Shown in pieces: positions 4,183 through 22,998 of a DNA stretch of 42,334 nt. Source of the stretch: Candidatus Methylomirabilota bacterium (GTDB lineage: Bacteria; Methylomirabilota; Methylomirabilia; Rokubacteriales; DASRDR01); assembly GCA_036005065.1 (NCBI GenBank), contig DASYQW010000137.1, positions 1-42,334 of the forward strand, read 5' to 3'. The notes below the pieces were generated by a model. The model was not told the DNA's origin. It did not search any database and was given only the letters and a program-made list of their open reading frames with translations. Made by a program: the position numbers and the translations under genes. Each line of letters begins with the position of its first letter. Position 1 is the stretch's first letter.

Positions 4183-5082
4183 ATGGCGGTACGGATCGGC
4201 GTCAACCCGATCGGCTGGACCAACGACGACCTCCCCGAGCTCGGCGGCGACATCCCGCTCGAGGTGTGTCTGCGGGAGGCGCGCGAGGCAGGGTACGAGG
4301 GCATCGAGCTCGGCCGGAAATTCCCGCGCCGGGCGAGCGAGCTCCGGCCGATCCTGGAGCGTCACGGGCTGGCCCTGGTCTCGGGCTGGTACGGGGCGGA
4401 ACTGCTCACGCGCTCCGTCAAGGACGAGATCGCCGCCGTCCAGGATCATCTGGACCTCCTCGCCGACATGGGCGCTCCCGTCATGGTCTTCGCCGAGGTG
4501 AGCGGCTGCGTCCACGAGCGGCGGGGGATCCCGCTCTCCCGCCGCCCGACGCTCGAAGGCGACGAGGCGTGGCGACGCTTCGGCGACGCGCTGACCGAGG
4601 TGGCCGAGCACCTGCAGGGGCGCGGGGTCCGGCTCGCGTATCACCACCACATGGGCACCGTGGTCGAGACCGAGGCGGAGATCGACCGCCTGATGGGGGT
4701 CACGGGCGAAGCGGTCGGGCTCCTGCTCGATACCGGGCATCTCAGCTACGCGGGCGGCGACGTGCTCGGCGTGGCCCGCCGTCATGCCGGGCGGCTCCGA
4801 CACGTGCACTGCAAGGACGTGCGCCCCGCCGTGCTGGCCGAGGCGCAGCGGAAGGATTGGAATTTCCTCGACGCGGTGGTGGCGGGCATCTTCACCGTGC
4901 CCGGGGACGGCATCGTGGACTACCCGGCGCTGATGCGGATCCTCGAGGCCGCCGGCTACGCCGGCTGGCTCGTCGTCGAGGCGGAGCAGGATCCGGCCGT
5001 GGCCCACCCCCTCACCTACGCCCGCCTCGGGTTCACGCACCTCCAGCGCGCCGTGACGGCCGCGGGCCTCAGCGGACCGTGA
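4183..5082 (+). CDS. iolE: Myo-inosose-2 dehydratase (IolE)
   Basis: IolE removes water from 2-keto-myo-inositol (inosose) to give the dione used by IolD. The 299-residue product is a xylose-isomerase-like TIM barrel of the family's normal length. It starts MAVRIGVNPIGWTNDDLPEL, a recognisable IolE opening, and carries YHHHMGT, LLLDTGHLSYAGGD and HVHCKDVRP, which supply the metal-binding histidine, aspartate and glutamate positions of this family. GAGAGG lies about 8 bp before the ATG. The gene is co-oriented with iolD and probably shares its promoter through repeat A. Its last 14 bp overlap the convergent SBBP-repeat gene. Confidence 0.93.
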   Translation: MAVRIGVNPIGWTNDDLPELGGDIPLEVCLREAREAGYEGIELGRKFPRRASELRPILERHGLALVSGWYGAELLTRSVKDEIAAVQDHLDLLADMGAPVMVFAEVSGCVHERRGIPLSRRPTLEGDEAWRRFGDALTEVAEHLQGRGVRLAYHHHMGTVVETEAEIDRLMGVTGEAVGLLLDTGHLSYAGGDVLGVARRHAGRLRHVHCKDVRPAVLAEAQRKDWNFLDAVVAGIFTVPGDGIVDYPALMRILEAAGYAGWLVVEAEQDPAVAHPLTYARLGFTHLQRAVTAAGLSGP

Positions 5083-7492
5083 GCGTGACCGCCCGGTCCT
5101 CCCAGGTGTAGAGGGTGCTCCAGTCCGCGTCGAAGACGCCCACCTTGAGCGTGTAGCGGCCGTCCGGCAAGCCCGCGGGCACGCGCCAGGGCCACAGGTA
5201 GGGACGAGCCTGGCCGGGCGTGAAGCCCTGCCGCTCGTAGACGCGTTGGGCGACCCGCCTTCCAGCCGTGTCGTAGATCTCGAGGTCGACGATGATCCCC
5301 GACGCCGCGGTGCTCGCGCTCACACGCGTCCGGATCAGCAGGACCGACCCCGGGCCGGCCGTCGGGGGCACGGTCGTCGTCGGCCCGATGGCGAAGCTCG
5401 GCGCCCGCCGGCCGCCCGGCCCGATCTTCGCGACGAAGGCGTCCCGGCCGCCGCGACGTGTTCCCTGGAAGGCGCGGGCGGTCGGGAAGTTACCCGAATC
5501 GGTGAAGCCGGCCACATAGGCGTTCCCCGCCGCATCCACCGTGACGCCGAGCGCCTCATCGGCCGCGCTCCCCCCCAGGTAGGTGGCGTAGGTGAGCCTG
5601 GCGCCCGCCGGATCGAGCCTGGCCAGGAACGCGTCCGAGCAGGGCCCGTCGATGCAGGTCCCGCCCCCGAGCCTCGCCTGCACGGGGTCCGCGATCGGAA
5701 AATCGCTCGAGCGAGTGGAGCCCGCGACGTAGGCATGCCCGGAGGCGTCCACCGCGATCCCCTGGCCCCGATCGTCCCCTCGCCCGCCCAGGAAGGTGGC
5801 GTAGACGAGGGCCGACCCCCCCGCGTTCAGCTTGGCGACGAAGGCGTCGTACACGTCGAGGCGGCACCCACAGACCGGCTGGAGTGGATGGGCCACCGGA
5901 AAGTCGGGGGACTCCGTCAGACCGGTCACGTGGGCCTGACCGGCGCCGTCCACCGCGATGCCGAGGCCCTGATCGAAGCCGCTTCCCCCGAGGTAGGTCG
6001 AGTAGACGAGTCTGGTGCCGGAGGGGTCGAGCTTGGCCACGAACGCGTCACCGAACCGGCCACCGAACGTCGCCTGGAGCGCGTTCACCGTCGGGAAGCC
6101 CTCCCAGGCGACACCCGTGACGTAGGCCGCCCCGGCGCCGTCCACCGCGATGCCGTACCCCGCCCCGACGCCGAAATCGGCCGAGTAGGCGAGCGAGCCG
6201 CCCGGGGCGAGCTTGAGGACGAAGGCGCCGCCCCGGCCGGTCGGGTGGAAGTGGCTCCGGGCCGAGAACACGACGCGCCCTGTGCCCGAGAGGCTGCCGG
6301 TCACGTAGGCGAATCCCGCGCCGTCCACCGCGACCGCGTAGGCCGCGTCGCCGAGCGAGCCGCCCACGTACGTCGCGTAGACGAGCCTCCCGCCCGTCGG
6401 CCCCAGCTTGGCCACGAACGCTTCGCCGCAGAGCCCGTGGCCGCACGACCCGCTGCGGTTCCCGGACTGGAGCGCGTTCACGGTCGGGAAGTCGGCCGAG
6501 TACGTCTCCCCCACGACGTGGACGCTGCCGTCCCGACCCACCGCGATGCCGCGGCCCACGTCGAGGCCGCTTCCGCCGAGGTAAGCGGCGTAGACCAGGC
6601 CGGAGCCGTCGGCCCTGAGCTTCGCCACGAAGGCGTCGCCGCCGCCCGCCGGGATGCCGGCGCCCGGGAAGTCCGCGGAGGTGGTCACGCCCGTCACGTA
6701 CGCGTACCCCGCCGCGTCGACCGCGATCGCGGAGGCTACGTCCAGCCCGCCGCCGCCGAGGAAGCTGGAGTAGACGAGCCGGGGATCGATGACGAGGGCT
6801 CGGCGCCGGTCATAGCTGCCGAGTCGGAAGCCGACCTCGCGCGGACCTCGGCGCTCGAAGCCCCCGGAGATCCGGCGCCGGGCACCGCCCACCTCCTGGT
6901 AGATCACGGGCCGCTCGATGCGGATCTCGCCGCCGGGGCTCCTCAGCACCAGATGCCCGGCGGCGTCGAGGGTCAGCGCGTCGAGGCCGTCGAAGGCCAG
7001 CCGGATGCCCCCGGCATCGGCCCCGGGGGCGACGACGAAGTCGTACTCGAGCTGCCCCTGGCGTCCGTAGTAGACGAGATCCACGCCGGGATAGACGCCC
7101 CGGTACACGACCCGGGCATAGGTCGGAATGTCGGTCCGCCAGCCGGCCGGGTCCCGCCCCACGAGATAGTGCGCTCTGGCGGGGAGCTCGTCCCGGCCCG
7201 AAACGACCGGCGCCGGGTTTGCCCCCAGCAGCCGCATCCGCACCACGCCGGCCGGGCCCCGACTCGTGGCGACGACGAGCGCCGCCTCGGTGGGCGTCAG
7301 GAAGAGCGTGTGACCGGGTGCGCGCGCGAGAAATCGGACCCGGGCGTCGGTCTGCCCCTCGTTCGCCTCGAAGAAGAGCGGGAGCCGGAGATCGTTCGCG
7401 GGCGGGCGCGCCGACGCCGTCCCGGCCGGGCCCGTCAACCCGAGGCCGACCGCGAGTGCCCACGTCCCGGCGATTCGACCGAAAGCTCGCAT
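5069..7492 (-). CDS. Secreted SBBP-repeat (beta-propeller-like) protein
   Basis: This 807-residue protein has a signal peptide (about residues 1-27, ending near ASARPP). Next comes an N-terminal domain with LFFEANEGQTDARVRFLARA, the typical front end of SBBP proteins. Seven repeats of about 50-60 residues follow, each with a YATYLGGS-like strand, a GIAVDxAGxAYVTG turn and a DAFVAKL strand. The C-terminal domain (about the last 110 residues, from VLLIRTRVSA to VTLTVR) looks like a FlgD/Ig-type fold. Proteins of this kind are extracellular or surface scaffolds of unknown ligand. The ATG at 7492 was chosen because GGAGG lies five bases upstream and a signal peptide follows. The gene runs toward iolE and overlaps it by 14 bp. 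Confidence 0.9.
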   Translation of the reverse strand: MRAFGRIAGTWALAVGLGLTGPAGTASARPPANDLRLPLFFEANEGQTDARVRFLARAPGHTLFLTPTEAALVVATSRGPAGVVRMRLLGANPAPVVSGRDELPARAHYLVGRDPAGWRTDIPTYARVVYRGVYPGVDLVYYGRQGQLEYDFVVAPGADAGGIRLAFDGLDALTLDAAGHLVLRSPGGEIRIERPVIYQEVGGARRRISGGFERRGPREVGFRLGSYDRRRALVIDPRLVYSSFLGGGGLDVASAIAVDAAGYAYVTGVTTSADFPGAGIPAGGGDAFVAKLRADGSGLVYAAYLGGSGLDVGRGIAVGRDGSVHVVGETYSADFPTVNALQSGNRSGSCGHGLCGEAFVAKLGPTGGRLVYATYVGGSLGDAAYAVAVDGAGFAYVTGSLSGTGRVVFSARSHFHPTGRGGAFVLKLAPGGSLAYSADFGVGAGYGIAVDGAGAAYVTGVAWEGFPTVNALQATFGGRFGDAFVAKLDPSGTRLVYSTYLGGSGFDQGLGIAVDGAGQAHVTGLTESPDFPVAHPLQPVCGCRLDVYDAFVAKLNAGGSALVYATFLGGRGDDRGQGIAVDASGHAYVAGSTRSSDFPIADPVQARLGGGTCIDGPCSDAFLARLDPAGARLTYATYLGGSAADEALGVTVDAAGNAYVAGFTDSGNFPTARAFQGTRRGGRDAFVAKIGPGGRRAPSFAIGPTTTVPPTAGPGSVLLIRTRVSASTAASGIIVDLEIYDTAGRRVAQRVYERQGFTPGQARPYLWPWRVPAGLPDGRYTLKVGVFDADWSTLYTWEDRAVTLTVR

Positions 7493-7682
7493 GGCACCTC
7501 CCTGGATGTGCTCCTCTCCAGAGGAGCAACGGCTGTGCCAGCTCGGCGGCCCGCGCGCTGGCACGCCGTCGCCGCGGCGGCGCTGCCCGCGACATGCTCG
7601 GGCCGGAGATCTCCTTAGAAGGGGCGGGACGGGATGTGCAAGTTTTGCCGGTCGGTGGAGCCGGGCCGCGGCCCGGGCCGTC

Positions 7683-8783
7683 TCACCGGCGGCGCCAGAC
7701 GGGGACCTGCTCGATCTCCACCTGCCGGCCACGGACGCGGAGTACGGCCATGCGCTGGCCGTGAGTGGTGCCCTTGGGGGACTGGTACCCCTCGCCGCTG
7801 ACGACGAACGGGATCCCTTGCTCGACCCAGAGGTGGTGGTCGTGAACGTGACCGGTCAGCGCCGCGTCCAGCCGCACGCGGACGAAGTCGCGCATGAGCT
7901 GGGTGGCGAAGGGCTCGTCGTCCAGGTACGCCTCGTGGGTGGGACGGCGGTCGAAGAGCGGCTTGTGCATGGCCACGAACAGCGGCCCCTCCCGGGGGAC
8001 GTCCAGGATCGCGGCGAACCACCGGTACTGTGTGCTGCGCCGCCAGAACGTGGGCAGGTAGTTGCCGGCATTGTCCAGGACGATGAAGGTGGCGCCGCCC
8101 ACCACGAACGCGTAGTACGGCGGGCCGAGGGCGCGCATGAACTCGATCCGCTCCGTATTCCGGTAGTCGTGGTTCCCTCGCACGATGAAGACGGGAATCG
8201 GCGACTGGGCGACGATCCGCGCGATGTTGGGCATCTGCTCGTCGCCGTAGATGAGGTCGCCCACGTGGAGCAGGAACTCGGCGCCGAGCTCGTCGGCCCG
8301 CCGAAGCGCTTCCGGGAACGTCGGGTCGTCCCCGGTGTCCCCGAGGACGGCGAAGGTGACCTCACGACCCCGGTCGACGAGCAGGAGCTGACGGGTCTCC
8401 CCGGGCGCGAAGCGGAGGATCCGCGTCTTCCCGGTGCGGTTTTCCTCGACGGGCCCCGAGGCGCGGAGACCGATCCGGCCGGGGACGTTCTCCAGCTCGA
8501 TCGTGACCGGCCCGGCGCCCGGCTCCGCGACGTGGATCGTCGGGGTCGGCTGCCAGGCGCGGAGGACGAGCCGGTCGGGCCGCGCCTGCCTGACCAGGGC
8601 TCCCGTCACGATGAGCGTGTGCCCGGCGTACCGGACGAGGGCGTGGGCCGGCGGCGGATCGAGCTGGACCAGGGTCCTCAGCCGGATCCGCCGGTCCCGG
8701 AGGTGGTAGGCTCCGACTTCCACCAGGGGCGCGGCGGCCAGCGCGACCGCCAGGAGCAGGACGACCCACCGGATGATCCGCAA
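7683..8783 (-). CDS. Calcineurin-like metallophosphoesterase, membrane-anchored
   Basis: This is a 366-residue protein with one N-terminal hydrophobic anchor (RIIRWVVLLLAVALAAAPLV), then a beta-rich segment of about 110 residues and a calcineurin-like phosphoesterase domain. Metal-site motifs are in order: GDTGD (148-152), GDLIY (175-179), GNHDY (203-207), a histidine in AMHKPLFD, and GHVHDHH near residue 300. The catalytic domain is probably outside the membrane. It would hydrolyse a phosphomono- or diester; the substrate cannot be told. The best start in frame is TTG at 8783, which places the anchor at the very N-terminus, but no clear ribosome site is visible. The gene is last in a long minus-strand run behind the SDR gene. 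A perfect GC palindrome (about 7667-7680) lies just after its stop and may end transcription, though no T-run follows. Confidence 0.88.
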   Translation of the reverse strand: MRIIRWVVLLLAVALAAAPLVEVGAYHLRDRRIRLRTLVQLDPPPAHALVRYAGHTLIVTGALVRQARPDRLVLRAWQPTPTIHVAEPGAGPVTIELENVPGRIGLRASGPVEENRTGKTRILRFAPGETRQLLLVDRGREVTFAVLGDTGDDPTFPEALRRADELGAEFLLHVGDLIYGDEQMPNIARIVAQSPIPVFIVRGNHDYRNTERIEFMRALGPPYYAFVVGGATFIVLDNAGNYLPTFWRRSTQYRWFAAILDVPREGPLFVAMHKPLFDRRPTHEAYLDDEPFATQLMRDFVRVRLDAALTGHVHDHHLWVEQGIPFVVSGEGYQSPKGTTHGQRMAVLRVRGRQVEIEQVPVWRRR

Positions 8784-20419: not shown

Positions 20420-20534
20420 GGCCCTCGGAGAGAGCAGGACCCGTGCCAGCGCGGCTGTCGGAAGAATCCCATGAAATTCACCACATTTCCGGCACTTCGC
20501 CCCAGCCGACTCGGCGGGAGGGCCTGCGGGCGGA

Positions 20535-20621
20535 GACTTTCTAGCCGGTGTCGTGGCCGGTTTCTGATCGGCCGAGGGCGACCGCGAGGCTCCTGAGGCA
20601 GGCCGGTATCAGGTCGTCGAG
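20535..20621 (+). repeat. Flanking direct repeat D, copy 1
   Basis: This segment starts GACTTTCTAGCC and runs to the first codons of the recombinase remnant. A similar segment in the same orientation occurs at 22871-22959, about 80% identical by eye with a 2-bp indel. The two copies bracket the whole integron-like block. Confidence 0.7.
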
Positions 20622-20696
20622 ACCTACACCCACGTCCTGAACCGTGGTCCGGCTGCCGTTCGGAGCCCAGCGGACCGGATGTTCTCCCCCATGACC
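20610..20696 (+). pseudogene. intI: C-terminal remnant of an integron-type tyrosine recombinase
   Basis: The frame starting CAG at 20610 reads VVETYTHVLNRGPAAVRSPA followed by DRM. This is the C-terminal signature of integron integrases (YTHVLNRG...VRSP.D), with the tyrosine at 20625-20627 in the position of the catalytic nucleophile. Nothing upstream in any frame looks like the rest of the enzyme: the catalytic RHRH box is absent. The homology to repeat D begins just before it, as if a deletion or recombination joined them. The fragment reads in the same direction as the cassettes that begin 214 bp downstream. In classical integrons intI is divergent from the cassettes; the same-direction layout is known from a few lineages such as Treponema. 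A phage or Xer recombinase remnant is less likely, because those lack the HVLNRG...VRSP ending. Confidence 0.7.
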
Positions 20697-20909
20697 CCGC
20701 CCCCCTCTTCCTCAGCGAGATGCGCCAAGATACGCTGCCGAGCCACGTCGCGTGTCTTGGTGTGTCACCGTCCCGCCAATGGGCGCAAGGTCGCGAATCG
20801 CAAGGACCGGAGGTCCGTACAGGAAACTGGCGGACCGTCGAGATAGGCCGCGTGGCCTCGCAGCGTTTGCCGTCATACGCAGACCTGGGTATCCTGTGGC
20901 CGAATTCGA

Positions 20910-20918
20910 GTTAGCCGT
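20910..20918 (+). other. Integron cassette boundary (core site GTTAGCC)
   Basis: GTTAGCCGT here is the exact reverse complement of ACGGCTAAC at 21742-21750, the R'' end of attC site 1. In a circular cassette the first bases of the cassette pair with R'' of its own site, so this marks the 5' crossover (between G20910 and T20911) of cassette 1. The 200 bp before it, back to the recombinase remnant, is where attI would be expected; no attC-like fold is seen there. Confidence 0.7.
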
Positions 20919-20922
20919 AGCC

Positions 20923-20950
20923 ACTTCTAGCGCGATACTTCTAGCGCGAT
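20923..20950 (+). repeat. Tandem 14-bp repeat (2 copies)
   Basis: ACTTCTAGCGCGAT occurs at 20923-20936 and again at 20937-20950, at the start of cassette 1 and directly before the ribosome site AAGGA of its gene. It may be a slippage duplication or a regulatory site. Confidence 0.8.
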
Positions 20951-20963
20951 AAGGACATGTCTA

Positions 20964-21722
20964 ATGGGAAGGCCGTTGGGTCGCGCAAGTCGATACCTTC
21001 CGGAACCGTTGTCCAGCTGGACCGCACTGATTCTGGTGGTCGGTGCCTTCGGCCTCGCCGCGGCCTGCGTGGCGCACGGCGCCGGCGTTGAGGGTCAGGT
21101 CTTCGAGGTGGTGAACCCCGAGGCGCCGAGGAGCCAATGGACGCGCGTTCCTTCCGCCGACGCCTATGTGATCGTTCATTGGCAGGGTACCATCCCTCGG
21201 CTCGGACACGCAGAATCTGTGTGCCTGCACGCGGCCATCGGCAAGACGGACGCGCGCGGCCGTTTCGAGGTGTCGGGTTCGTGGGCCGCGCCACAGGGCT
21301 TCCCGGTCATTCGGAGAGATCCGGCCGTCATGGCGCACAAACCCGGCTTCGACCAGCAATCCGACTTTCGCAGCGGGGGCGCCCCGGTCGTGCGCACGCT
21401 CGTCCGCTCGAAGCTTGCTGCCGAGGAGCGGGTCGCGCTGCTCTCGATGTATGCGGAAACCGGCTGCCGGGATCACGATACTTTCAAGATGATCCCGCTC
21501 GGGGACCCGCAGGGGGTTGCCACCCGTTTCTATCGCGCACTCTACGAAGAAGCGCAGGCGCTCGGCCCGCTGCCGCCCGGGTTGAATCACCTCCTCGTGC
21601 CCCTTCGCGAGAAGGCGGGCGTCCCGCAGCCGGCGGAGCCGCCTTGGCAAATCCGCGCCATTCCCCCTCAGGGGGCACGTCCGGTCGCACCCGCGCCGGC
21701 CGCTCCGGCCGACCGTCCGTGA
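20964..21722 (+). CDS. Cassette-borne secreted protein of unknown function
   Basis: This 252-residue product is the single gene of cassette 1 (20911-21833). It has an N-terminal hydrophobic segment, LSSWTALILVVGAFGLAAACV, which is a signal peptide or anchor with a cysteine that could be lipidated. The next part, GVEGQVFEVVNPEAPRSQWT to GKTDARGRFEVSG, resembles a carboxypeptidase-regulatory-like beta sandwich. A helical region with RFYRALYEEAQALGPLPPGL follows, and the tail is rich in proline and alanine. AAGGA lies about 8 bp before the ATG. The gene starts about 50 bp into the cassette and stops 21 bp before the attC site, the compact layout of integron cassettes. I do not recognise a named family. 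Its GC content looks somewhat lower than that of its neighbours. Confidence 0.75.
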   Translation: MGRPLGRASRYLPEPLSSWTALILVVGAFGLAAACVAHGAGVEGQVFEVVNPEAPRSQWTRVPSADAYVIVHWQGTIPRLGHAESVCLHAAIGKTDARGRFEVSGSWAAPQGFPVIRRDPAVMAHKPGFDQQSDFRSGGAPVVRTLVRSKLAAEERVALLSMYAETGCRDHDTFKMIPLGDPQGVATRFYRALYEEAQALGPLPPGLNHLLVPLREKAGVPQPAEPPWQIRAIPPQGARPVAPAPAAPADRP

Positions 21723-21743
21723 CCCGGCGGGCGAGCGCATGAC

Positions 21744-21839
21744 GGCTAACCCGGCGATCGAGCGGACCGCCCAACGGCGTTGCCGTTGGGTACCCTCGGC
21801 GCTTTGCGCCTCGGCGGCCGCTCATCGCGACCGTTGATA
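21744..21839 (+). other. attC recombination site 1
   Basis: R'' is GGCTAAC (21744-21750) and R' is GTTGATA (21833-21839). The arms pair as CGAT/ATCG (21755-21758 with 21824-21827), GAGCGG/CCGCTC (21760-21765 with 21818-21823) and CCGCC/GGCGG (21767-21771 with 21813-21817). C21759 and A21766 are left unpaired on the 5' arm. On the bottom strand these are G and T, the same bases as the known extrahelical bases that IntI reads. A further hairpin (CCCAACGGC/GCCGTTGGG) sits in the variable terminal part. Length 96 bp, within the normal attC range. Confidence 0.8.
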
Positions 21840-21950
21840 TGACTTCCACTGTCAAGAGCCACGAAGACCCCCGGATCGCGGGTGCCGTTTGCCTTCATGG
21901 GGGTTGCTCGAGCCATCGGAAGAGGCGGAGCCTGTAACTGCGACGGTTGA

Positions 21951-22333
21951 TCATGCTGATATCCGTGGGTTGGGTACCACCGTACAGGTGTCCGTCGCGG
22001 CGCCTGCTTCGCTCTTGGGGGCGAGGGTCGTGATGATGTCTCCGAGTTCGGCCATCAAGATGATGGCGCCGGTGAGCTCCACGCCCCGCAGCGCCTGGAT
22101 CGCCTCGACCACTGACTCGCGAAGAATACGACGCCTGGCTTCTCTCTACCGTTGAATCGTCGTGCTGGGAATCCTATTCGCGCAACAGCCTTGATGACGA
22201 TCGCTGGGCGTACTTTGCGAAGCTCGTCAACATCGTGGTCTATGAGATCGTGGCGAATCGCGAACTCTTCCCGAGTCAGACTGGCAGCGCCTGAGTGACC
22301 CGAGGAGGTGTGCGAGACATCGGCTAACAACAT
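21951..22333 (-). pseudogene. Frameshifted cassette gene of unknown family
   Basis: The minus strand reads TREEFAIRHDLIDHDVDELR, then KVRPAIVIKAVARIGFPARR and GVVFFAS in one frame. Near 22110 the sense switches frame and continues VVEAIQALRGVELTGAIILM and AELGDIITTLAPKS to a stop at 21951. The two parts together look like one cytoplasmic alpha/beta protein of about 125 residues, broken by a short indel. I do not recognise the family. The true N-terminus is uncertain; the ATG at 22333 overlaps attC site 2. The gene runs against the cassette direction, which occurs in a minority of integron cassettes. A sequencing error instead of a true mutation cannot be excluded. Confidence 0.5.
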
Positions 22334-22384
22334 GGTGGAGCGGCCCGGCCCAGGGCGGCCGGCCGCTCACCATGCGCGTTCGCC
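22322..22384 (+). other. attC recombination site 2
   Basis: R'' is GGCTAAC (22322-22328), identical to that of site 1, and R' is GTTCGCC (22378-22384), one base from its complement. The arms pair as CATGGTG/CACCATG (22331-22337 with 22368-22374), AGCGG/CCGCT (22339-22343 with 22363-22367) and CCGGCC/GGCCGG (22345-22350 with 22357-22362). G22338 and C22344 stay unpaired on the 5' arm, as in site 1. The loop is six bases and the total length 63 bp, typical for short attC sites. Confidence 0.72.
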
Positions 22385-22465
22385 GCATGGGCAGACCGTC
22401 CACGACGATCGGCAGCGGGGTTCGATTGTCCTGAACATGCTGCGCGATGCAGCTCGGAGGTTCCG

Positions 22466-22648
22466 ATGCCGGACGGGAGCGTCAAAGAGAAAGTCCTCGA
22501 GGTGATCAAGAAACTTCCAGCCGACGCCACGCTTGAGGACGCCATCGAGCGGTTGGTGCTCTTGGCAAAGACGGAGCGCGGATTGGCGGAACTTGATGCC
22601 GGAAAGGGCGTCGACCACGCAGAGGCAAAGCGTCGCCTTCTCCGGTAA
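22466..22648 (+). CDS. ParD/RelB-like antitoxin of a toxin-antitoxin pair
   Basis: This 60-residue protein starts MPDGSVKEKVLEVIKKLPAD and ends EAKRRLLR. It is mostly helical, with the pattern of small antitoxins in which a VLEVIxxLPxDAT(L)EDAIERL segment is followed by a GLAxLxAGxxVxHxEAKRRL tail that binds the toxin. The start has GGAGG about 5 bp upstream. Its stop codon TAA (22646-22648) overlaps the first codon of the toxin remnant. Toxin-antitoxin pairs are frequent integron cassette cargo, where they stabilise the array; this pair sits directly after attC site 2. It is likely intact and may be a relic without partner. Confidence 0.65.
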   Translation: MPDGSVKEKVLEVIKKLPADATLEDAIERLVLLAKTERGLAELDAGKGVDHAEAKRRLLR

Positions 22649-22998
22649 CCCGTGTAATCTGGGCGCCTCAGGCGATCCAAGACGTCGAGGCGATACGTGC
22701 GCACGCGGCTCGCGACTCCCCTCACTATGCCGACCTCGTCGTTGAACGGATCATCACGACCGTGGAGCGCCTCACGGAGCATCCTCGCTCCGGACGTGTG
22801 GTGCCCGAGCTAGGCGACGACTCGATCCGCGAGGCAACTACGCACGCGGGAGGTGCCCCGCGTGGCCGGCGAGTTTCTAGCCGCCACCGTGGCCCGTTTC
22901 TGACCGGCCGAGGGCGACCGCCTGGCTCCTAAGGCAGGCCAGGATCAAGTCGTTGAAGGCCGCGGCCGGGAGCCGCGTCCGGGGGCCAGTCTCAGTGA
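22645..22998 (+). pseudogene. Truncated ParE-like toxin without a start codon
   Basis: The frame reads VIWAPQAIQDVEAIRAHAAR, then DSPHYADLVVERIITTVERL and PRSGRVVPELGDDSIREA, a clear ParE/RelE-family N-terminal and middle part (about 65 residues). Past about 22838 the sequence no longer fits: the conserved C-terminal strands (REV...YRIVYR...) are missing, and the frame runs into repeat D until TGA at 22996. No ATG, GTG or TTG is in frame upstream. The codon overlapping the antitoxin stop is GTA (22645-22647), where an ancestral GTG inside GTGA would be expected. A single G-to-A change would have turned GTGA into GTAA and removed the toxin start while keeping the antitoxin stop. Confidence 0.65.
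22871..22959 (+). repeat. Flanking direct repeat D, copy 2
   Basis: It begins GAGTTTCTAGCC and aligns with 20535-20621 in the same orientation, about 80% identical by eye. It closes the integron-like block just before the 3' end of the next chromosomal gene. Confidence 0.7.

What the first reader, a model, noticed from the sequence alone, without database searches (positions are those of the whole stretch)
20911..21839. Complete integron gene cassette with an attC site and matching 5' boundary
Seen: GTTAGCCGT at 20910-20918 is the exact reverse complement of ACGGCTAAC at 21742-21750. That is the relation expected between the start of a cassette and the R'' end of its own attC. The attC at 21744-21839 forms a 15-bp stem with two unpaired bases (C21759, A21766) on the 5' arm, G and T on the bottom strand, as in characterised attC sites. 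Between them lies one plus-strand gene with a ribosome site, stopping 21 bp before R''. All three features would be unlikely to coincide by chance. An integron in this type of genome appears little described.
Basis: partly seen in the sequence, partly recalled or inferred. Interest (0 to 1): 0.87.

Follow-up and report, generated by a model that had tools for sequence, protein, structure and literature searches.

The report
Degraded integron with captured gene cassettes

Summary
Confirmed and extended. The stem-loop at 21744-21839 is a genuine attC. A covariance model trained only on attCs lying downstream of intact integron integrases in related genomes scores it 54 bits (E 2e-9 in the whole genome). 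A known class 1 attC (aadA5) scores 42 with the same model. The 5' boundary is right: in a contig of another MAG the same cassette (95% identical) starts at the same GTTAGCCGTAG in a different array. The order is integrase, attI, cassettes, all on one strand: the 'reverse' layout known from Treponema. In 21 relatives' loci with a full-length integrase, 39 of 39 attCs lie downstream on the same strand. The 3' edge is not intact: an IS1111/IS110-type element inserted after GTT of R'; cassette 2 is truncated and cassette 3 is a broken ParE toxin-antitoxin pair. attCs occur in 57 of 59 genomes of the order, by inference Rokubacteriales (Methylomirabilota); I found no published report. New member of a known kind.

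The parts
20625..20690 (+). Integron integrase (IntI) remnant: last 22 codons, YTHVLNRGPAAVRSPADRMFSP; the old stop TGA follows at 20692-20694 after a 1-base frame change
   Evidence: tblastn 95% over 22 aa to the C-terminus of an intact IntI of the same order; 83% nt identity over 69 nt to the degraded IntI on contig C201 of the same genome
20858..20916 (+). attI site; crossover G|TT between 20910 and 20911, about 215 nt after the old integrase stop
   Evidence: 77% identity over 57 nt to the corresponding region of L057; GGCCGAATTCGA|GTTA shared with C201; relatives have the first-cassette junction 180-245 nt after the integrase stop
20911..21833 (+). Gene cassette 1, complete (TTAGCCGT...GCGACCG)
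   Evidence: 5' end matches the inverse of its own R''; same 5' boundary in L048
20964..21722 (+). Cassette 1 gene, 252 aa, probable N-terminal membrane helix, function unknown
   Evidence: ORF; 91% aa identity to the L048 protein; no Pfam, NCBIfam or plasmid match; low-confidence AlphaFold model (pLDDT 45.5)
21744..21839 (+). attC1; R'' 21744-21750, extrahelical C21759 and A21766, R' GTT 21833-21835 with its RRRY half replaced by an IS end
   Evidence: CM R1 54.0 bits; geometric score 45; fold z -4.4
21836..22112 (-). Remnant of an IS1111/IS110-family insertion sequence in attC1 R' (transposase on the minus strand, internally deleted, one end lost)
   Evidence: Same IS end (ATATGACTTCCACTGTCAAG) abuts attC R' in L050, L062, L076/L121 and in C213 of this genome; the L062 copy is DEDD_Tnp_IS110 / NF033542
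22113..22291 (+). 3' end of the truncated cassette 2 gene (about 60 codons, no family match)
   Evidence: open frame up to a stop about 30 nt before attC2; no Pfam match
22322..22384 (+). attC2
   Evidence: CM R1 58.5 bits, E 1.5e-10 in the genome; geometric score 47; 93% identical over 55 nt to an attC downstream of an intact IntI in L066; fold z -4.5
22379..22836 (+). Cassette 3, truncated: antitoxin-like ORF 22466-22648 followed by a ParE toxin fragment 22654-22836
   Evidence: PF05016 ParE E 3e-10; homologous pair (79% nt over 379 nt) between attCs in L113

Best explanation
The locus is a decayed chromosomal integron of the 'reverse' type. In life it held intI, then attI about 215 nt after the intI stop, then cassettes, all on one strand. 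Cassettes arrive as circles whose folded attC bottom strand is recombined by IntI with attI, between G and TT of the core site (inferred from the established integron mechanism; the sites it needs are shown here). Cassette 1 (20911-21833) sits at attI and carries a 252-aa, probably membrane-anchored or secreted protein. An IS1111-type element landed in the R' box of attC1 and later decayed. Cassette 2 is truncated, and cassette 3, a ParE-type toxin-antitoxin pair, is broken off at 22836. The integrase gene is lost except for its last 22 codons, so new captures here would need an integrase from elsewhere in the cell. Intact relatives exist in the same order.
For: Held-out covariance-model hits to both attCs. 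The same model finds the known aadA5 attC of a class 1 integron and 30 same-strand attCs in a Gemmatirosa integron, and nothing in ten non-integron loci. Integrase C-terminus at the expected place. attI homology and spacing. In relatives the first attC's R'' predicts the cassette start over 8 of 8 bases in 9 of 15 loci, 180-245 nt after the intI stop. In 21 loci with full-length intI, 39/39 attCs are downstream on the same strand and none lie in 149 kb upstream. Cassette 1 occurs in a different array with the same start. About a dozen attCs and two further degraded IntIs lie elsewhere in this genome. IntI family membership of the relatives: up to 473 bits to TIGR02249; PDB 2a3v (IntI4) is the best solved match, with the integron-specific region aligned.
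Against: No recombination was measured. R' of attC1 is GTTGATA, not GTTRRRY (explained by the IS). The extrahelical bases of attC2 are G and C on the top strand, not the usual C and A. The genome is a 419-contig MAG, so an intact integrase may simply be unassembled. L048 is a 3.7-kb MAG contig with an NN gap just after the gene, so the 3' end of the homologous cassette cannot be compared.
Confidence: 0.96

Rival explanations
1. A chance hairpin or an unrelated inverted-repeat element (REP-like, terminator-like) beside an ordinary chromosomal gene.
For: The genome is GC-rich and has many inverted repeats (185 pairs in 12 kb).
Against: Exact attC geometry (8 nt, 1, 6, 1 ... 6, 9 nt) in two sites; no shuffle reaches 30 against 45 and 47; whole-genome E 1e-9 to 1e-10 with a model trained elsewhere; attI and IntI remnant next door.
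Confidence: 0.01
2. A cluster of attCs lacking an integrase (CALIN) made by cassette insertion at a secondary site, never attached to an integrase.
For: No intact intI within the window; most attC clusters in this genome have none nearby.
Against: The last 22 codons of IntI and an attI homologous to those of intact integrons lie directly upstream, at the spacing seen in relatives. By current status the locus would still be called a CALIN, but its origin is a complete integron.
Confidence: 0.02
3. The gene is spread by the IS110/IS1111-type element rather than by an integron.
For: An IS remnant directly abuts the 3' end of cassette 1.
Against: The IS lies outside the cassette, its end abuts five different attCs in five arrays, and the gene's 5' boundary is the attI/attC core site, not an IS end.
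Confidence: 0.01

Closest known systems
Reverse-orientation chromosomal integrons of Treponema (T. denticola and others; PMC3607928)
   Same: [quoted passage not shown] attI just after the intI stop; tandem same-strand cassettes with attCs
   Different: Different phylum; GC-rich attCs; here several small, often decayed loci per genome
Class 1 mobile integron (IntI1/attI1, aadA-type attC; control L124)
   Same: IntI 50-56% identical; same attC geometry and core sites; model R1 finds the aadA5 attC at 42 bits
   Different: Class 1 has intI divergent from the cassettes and sits on mobile elements with resistance cassettes; here intI points the same way, the locus is apparently chromosomal and no resistance gene was recognised in the cassettes
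Gemmatirosa kalamazoonensis plasmid integron (NZ_CP007129, L125)
   Same: Integrase 61-65% identical; same reverse layout (IntI and 30 attCs on one strand, attCs downstream)
   Different: A large array on a megaplasmid; here a three-cassette relic
IS1111-attC insertion sequences (attC-targeting ISKpn4 and ISPst6; PMC11187229)
   Same: DEDD transposase; subterminal inverted repeats about 9-10 bp; 3-bp and 7-bp terminal extensions; inserted between GTT and RRRY of attC R'
   Different: Copies here are mostly internally deleted; full-length element and guide-RNA region not examined

Membership tests
Integron | attC site: paired R''/R' and L''/L' arms, extrahelical bases on one arm, AAC/GTT cores | tested here: met
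   (two sites)
Integron | Cassette start complementary to its own R'' (one crossover point G|TTRRRY) | tested here: met
   GTTAGCCGT / ACGGCTAAC; same start in L048; same rule in 9 of 15 relatives' loci
Integron | attI next to intI | tested here: met
   attI-like region 20858-20916 about 215 nt after the integrase remnant stop
Integron | Functional intI tyrosine recombinase with the integron-specific region | tested here: not met
   Only the last 22 codons remain at this locus; the C201 copy has a stop and an internal deletion. Intact in other genomes of the order. So: a relic of an integron, not a complete one
Integron | IntI-dependent recombination of the attC bottom strand | not testable with these tools
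   needs a bench assay
Reverse-type integron | intI and cassettes on the same strand, attI at the 3' side of intI | tested here: met
   window order; 39/39 attCs downstream and co-oriented in 21 loci
IS1111-attC group | DEDD transposase of IS110/IS1111 type | tested here: met
   PF01548 and NF033542 on the L062 copy; the window copy is a fragment homologous to it
IS1111-attC group | Subterminal inverted repeats (usually 11-13 bp) with 7- and 3-bp extensions | tested here: inconclusive
   ATGACTTCC/GGAAGTCAT with 3 and 7 bp outside, in L121 and L122; repeat slightly shorter than usual, and the window copy has lost one end
IS1111-attC group | Insertion in attC | tested here: met
   same position, after GTT of R', in five arrays; flanks rejoin to GTTAGGC and GTTAGCC

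The most novel reading that the evidence does not exclude
Reverse-orientation integrons are an old, near-universal trait of the phylum Methylomirabilota (above all Rokubacteriales), a major unrecognised bacterial reservoir of cassettes that also exchanges cassettes with other phyla, as the 95%-identical cassette in a deltaproteobacterial MAG suggests.
Probability: 0.6. Interest if true: 0.68.

Novelty: new member of a known kind. Interest (0 to 1): 0.6.

Why it matters
Integrons are best known from Proteobacteria and as carriers of antibiotic-resistance genes. Here an uncultured lineage carries them almost universally (57 of 59 genomes of the order with attCs, 24 of 60 with an integrase above the curated cut-off), in the less common reverse layout. 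A cassette shared at 95% identity with a MAG assigned to another phylum points to recent exchange. This adds a large, apparently unreported source of cassettes and gives the reverse layout another major lineage in which its expression and regulation can be compared with Treponema.

Tried and rejected
Rfam scan of the region: no family. Chance hairpin: rejected. Reading 21833 onward as the start of an ordinary second cassette: rejected after the same sequence proved to be the end of an IS110-family element abutting attCs in other arrays. Other copies of GTTAGCCGT in the genome (C57, C100, C217): no attC nearby. Function of the cassette 1 protein: no Pfam or NCBIfam match, no plasmid or viral-contig match, no homologue in the 93 other genomes of the phylum searched; AlphaFold model too poor to search with (pLDDT 45.5). 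Flanking 93-bp direct repeat: no match elsewhere in the genome or the order; left unexplained. Two Streptomyces plasmids meant as negative controls were not in the collection; ten non-integron loci served instead.

Full report
WHAT IS THERE. GTTAGCCGT (20910-20918) is the reverse complement of ACGGCTAAC (21742-21750), and this 9-mer occurs five times on both strands of the 5.63-Mb genome. The attC at 21744-21839 reads GGCTAAC-CCGGCGAT-[C]-GAGCGG-[A]-CCGCC...GGCGG-CCGCTC-ATCGCGACC-GTTGATA: spacer 8, extrahelical base, 6-bp L arm, extrahelical base, spacer 9. [quoted passage not shown] The single strand folds better than 200 of 200 shuffles. A second attC with the same geometry lies at 22322-22384. 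In a simple geometric scan the two score 45 and 47; 20 shuffled windows give nothing at 30 or above.

INDEPENDENT MODEL. The best test was to train an attC model elsewhere. Sixty genomes of the same order were searched with the integron-integrase family TIGR02249: 24 have a match above the curated cut-off. I took 20 loci with a full-length integrase and collected 17 attCs by the geometric scan. From these I built covariance model R1. The pair covariation in that alignment (11 pairs with changes on both sides) is partly built in, because the sites were chosen by pairing. R1 had seen no sequence from this genome. It scores the window sites 58.5 and 54.0 bits, E 1.5e-10 and 1.9e-9 in the whole genome, ranks 3 and 6 of 15 hits at E<=1. 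Controls: the aadA5 attC of a class 1 integron is found in place at 42.4 bits, a Gemmatirosa integron gives 30 sites all on one strand, and ten non-integron loci give none.

THE INTEGRASE AND attI. Position 20625-20690 encodes YTHVLNRGPAAVRSPADRMFSP, 95% identical to the C-terminus of an intact integron integrase of the order, and matches the degraded integrase on contig C201 of the same genome (83% over 69 nt). That C201 copy has an in-frame stop and lacks about 150 residues. About 215 nt after the old stop comes GGCCGAATTCGA|GTTAGCCG. C201 shares GGCCGAATTCGAGTTA, and the surrounding 57 nt are 77% identical to the equivalent region of L057, where the crossover lies 216 nt after the integrase stop. 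In 15 relatives' loci the first attC's R'' predicts the cassette start over all 8 bases in 9 cases, 180-245 nt after the stop. So the left boundary of cassette 1 is an attI.

LAYOUT. In 21 loci with a full-length integrase, all 39 model hits lie downstream of the integrase and on its strand; none lies in 149 kb upstream (17 of the 39 were training sites). Typical integrons have the integrase divergent from the cassettes; the same-direction layout is the atypical one described in Treponema (PMC3607928). The window has this layout.

CASSETTE 1 MOVES. The 252-aa gene has one relative in the genome collection searched: 95% nt identity over 723 bp in JACPFH010000686 (L048), a contig binned as a deltaproteobacterium that carries other attCs. 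Both copies start GTTAGCCGTAG-CACTT, with unrelated sequence to the left of G|TT. No other genome of the phylum among the 94 searched has it. The binning of L048 is not proven, and two Ns follow the gene, so its 3' end is unknown.

THE 3' EDGE. R' of attC1 is GTT followed by GATATGACTTCCACTGTCAAG. The same sequence abuts attC R' in L062, L076/L121 and contig C213 of this genome, and with one base changed in L050. The L062 copy encodes an IS110-family transposase on the opposite strand. Joining the flanks of the element in L121 and C213 leaves GTT|AGGC and GTT|AGCC, ordinary or near-ordinary R' boxes, with 3 and 7 bp outside the inverted repeats, as stated for IS1111-family elements (PMC11187229). 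Members of that family are known to target attC sites (same paper). In the window the element is internally deleted and has lost one end; after it come about 60 codons of a truncated cassette 2 gene and then attC2.

CASSETTE 3. After attC2 an antitoxin-like ORF (22466-22648) and a ParE fragment (PF05016, E 3e-10) follow; a homologous pair sits between attCs in L113. The ParE gene breaks off at 22836.

HOST AND SPREAD. Hosts are unnamed. The phylum's 95 held genomes form one class; a sister family with a closed 2.8-Mb genome carries particulate methane/ammonia mono-oxygenase subunit A (6 of 7 genomes tested), which points to Methylomirabilota, and the window's order to Rokubacteriales (inference). 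R1 hits at E<=1e-5 occur in 57 of 59 genomes of the order, up to 44 per genome, and at 1e-6 in 85 of 95 of the phylum. The integrases of the order are 70% or more identical to each other and 50-56% to IntI1. In the open-licence library no paper was found that reports integrons in Rokubacteria, Methylomirabilota or Methylomirabilis (judged from titles and abstracts); subscription papers and preprints were not searchable.

SHOWN AND INFERRED. Shown: attCs, attI homology, integrase stump, boundaries, shared cassettes, layout and prevalence by model. Inferred: that these sites recombine, that cassette 1 was captured at this attI by an integrase now lost, and the host name. Limits: fragmented MAGs, rough model E-values, no bench data.

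Noticed in passing
window 20528-20620 and 22864-22956: A 93-bp direct repeat (83% identical) brackets the integron relic: one copy ends where the integrase remnant begins, the other follows the broken ParE gene. No other copy in the genome or in 58 related genomes. Both read on the minus strand as the end of a protein (...ACLRS.AVALGRSETGH..G*). Origin unexplained.
   Followed up: partly
L014 (contig C201) 341-2060, minus strand: A second integron relic in this genome: integrase with an in-frame stop and a large deletion, attI-like site, one cassette with an adenylate-cyclase-like gene, and a strong attC (66 bits).
   Followed up: partly
L105 (contig C419) 1507-5395: Three attCs on one strand with no integrase seen; the largest surviving cassette array found in this genome along with C213. 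Cassette contents not examined.
   Followed up: no
L108 (contig C180) 5255-5924: N-terminal integrase fragment (about 47 residues) with an attC some 450 nt further on: a third decayed integron.
   Followed up: no
L121 4620-4889; L122 (minus strand), L062, L050: IS1111/IS110-type elements repeatedly inserted after GTT of attC R' in this lineage, usually internally deleted. A useful set for studying how these RNA-guided elements recognise attC.
   Followed up: partly
L125 98-17775: Gemmatirosa kalamazoonensis megaplasmid: 30 attCs in 16 kb downstream of and co-oriented with its integrase, i.e. also a reverse integron.
   Followed up: no
window 5069-7732, minus strand: Long 887-aa ORF made of repeated units of about 60 residues (LGGSG.D...GIAVD..G..YV.G.T.S.DFP); not examined.
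   Followed up: no
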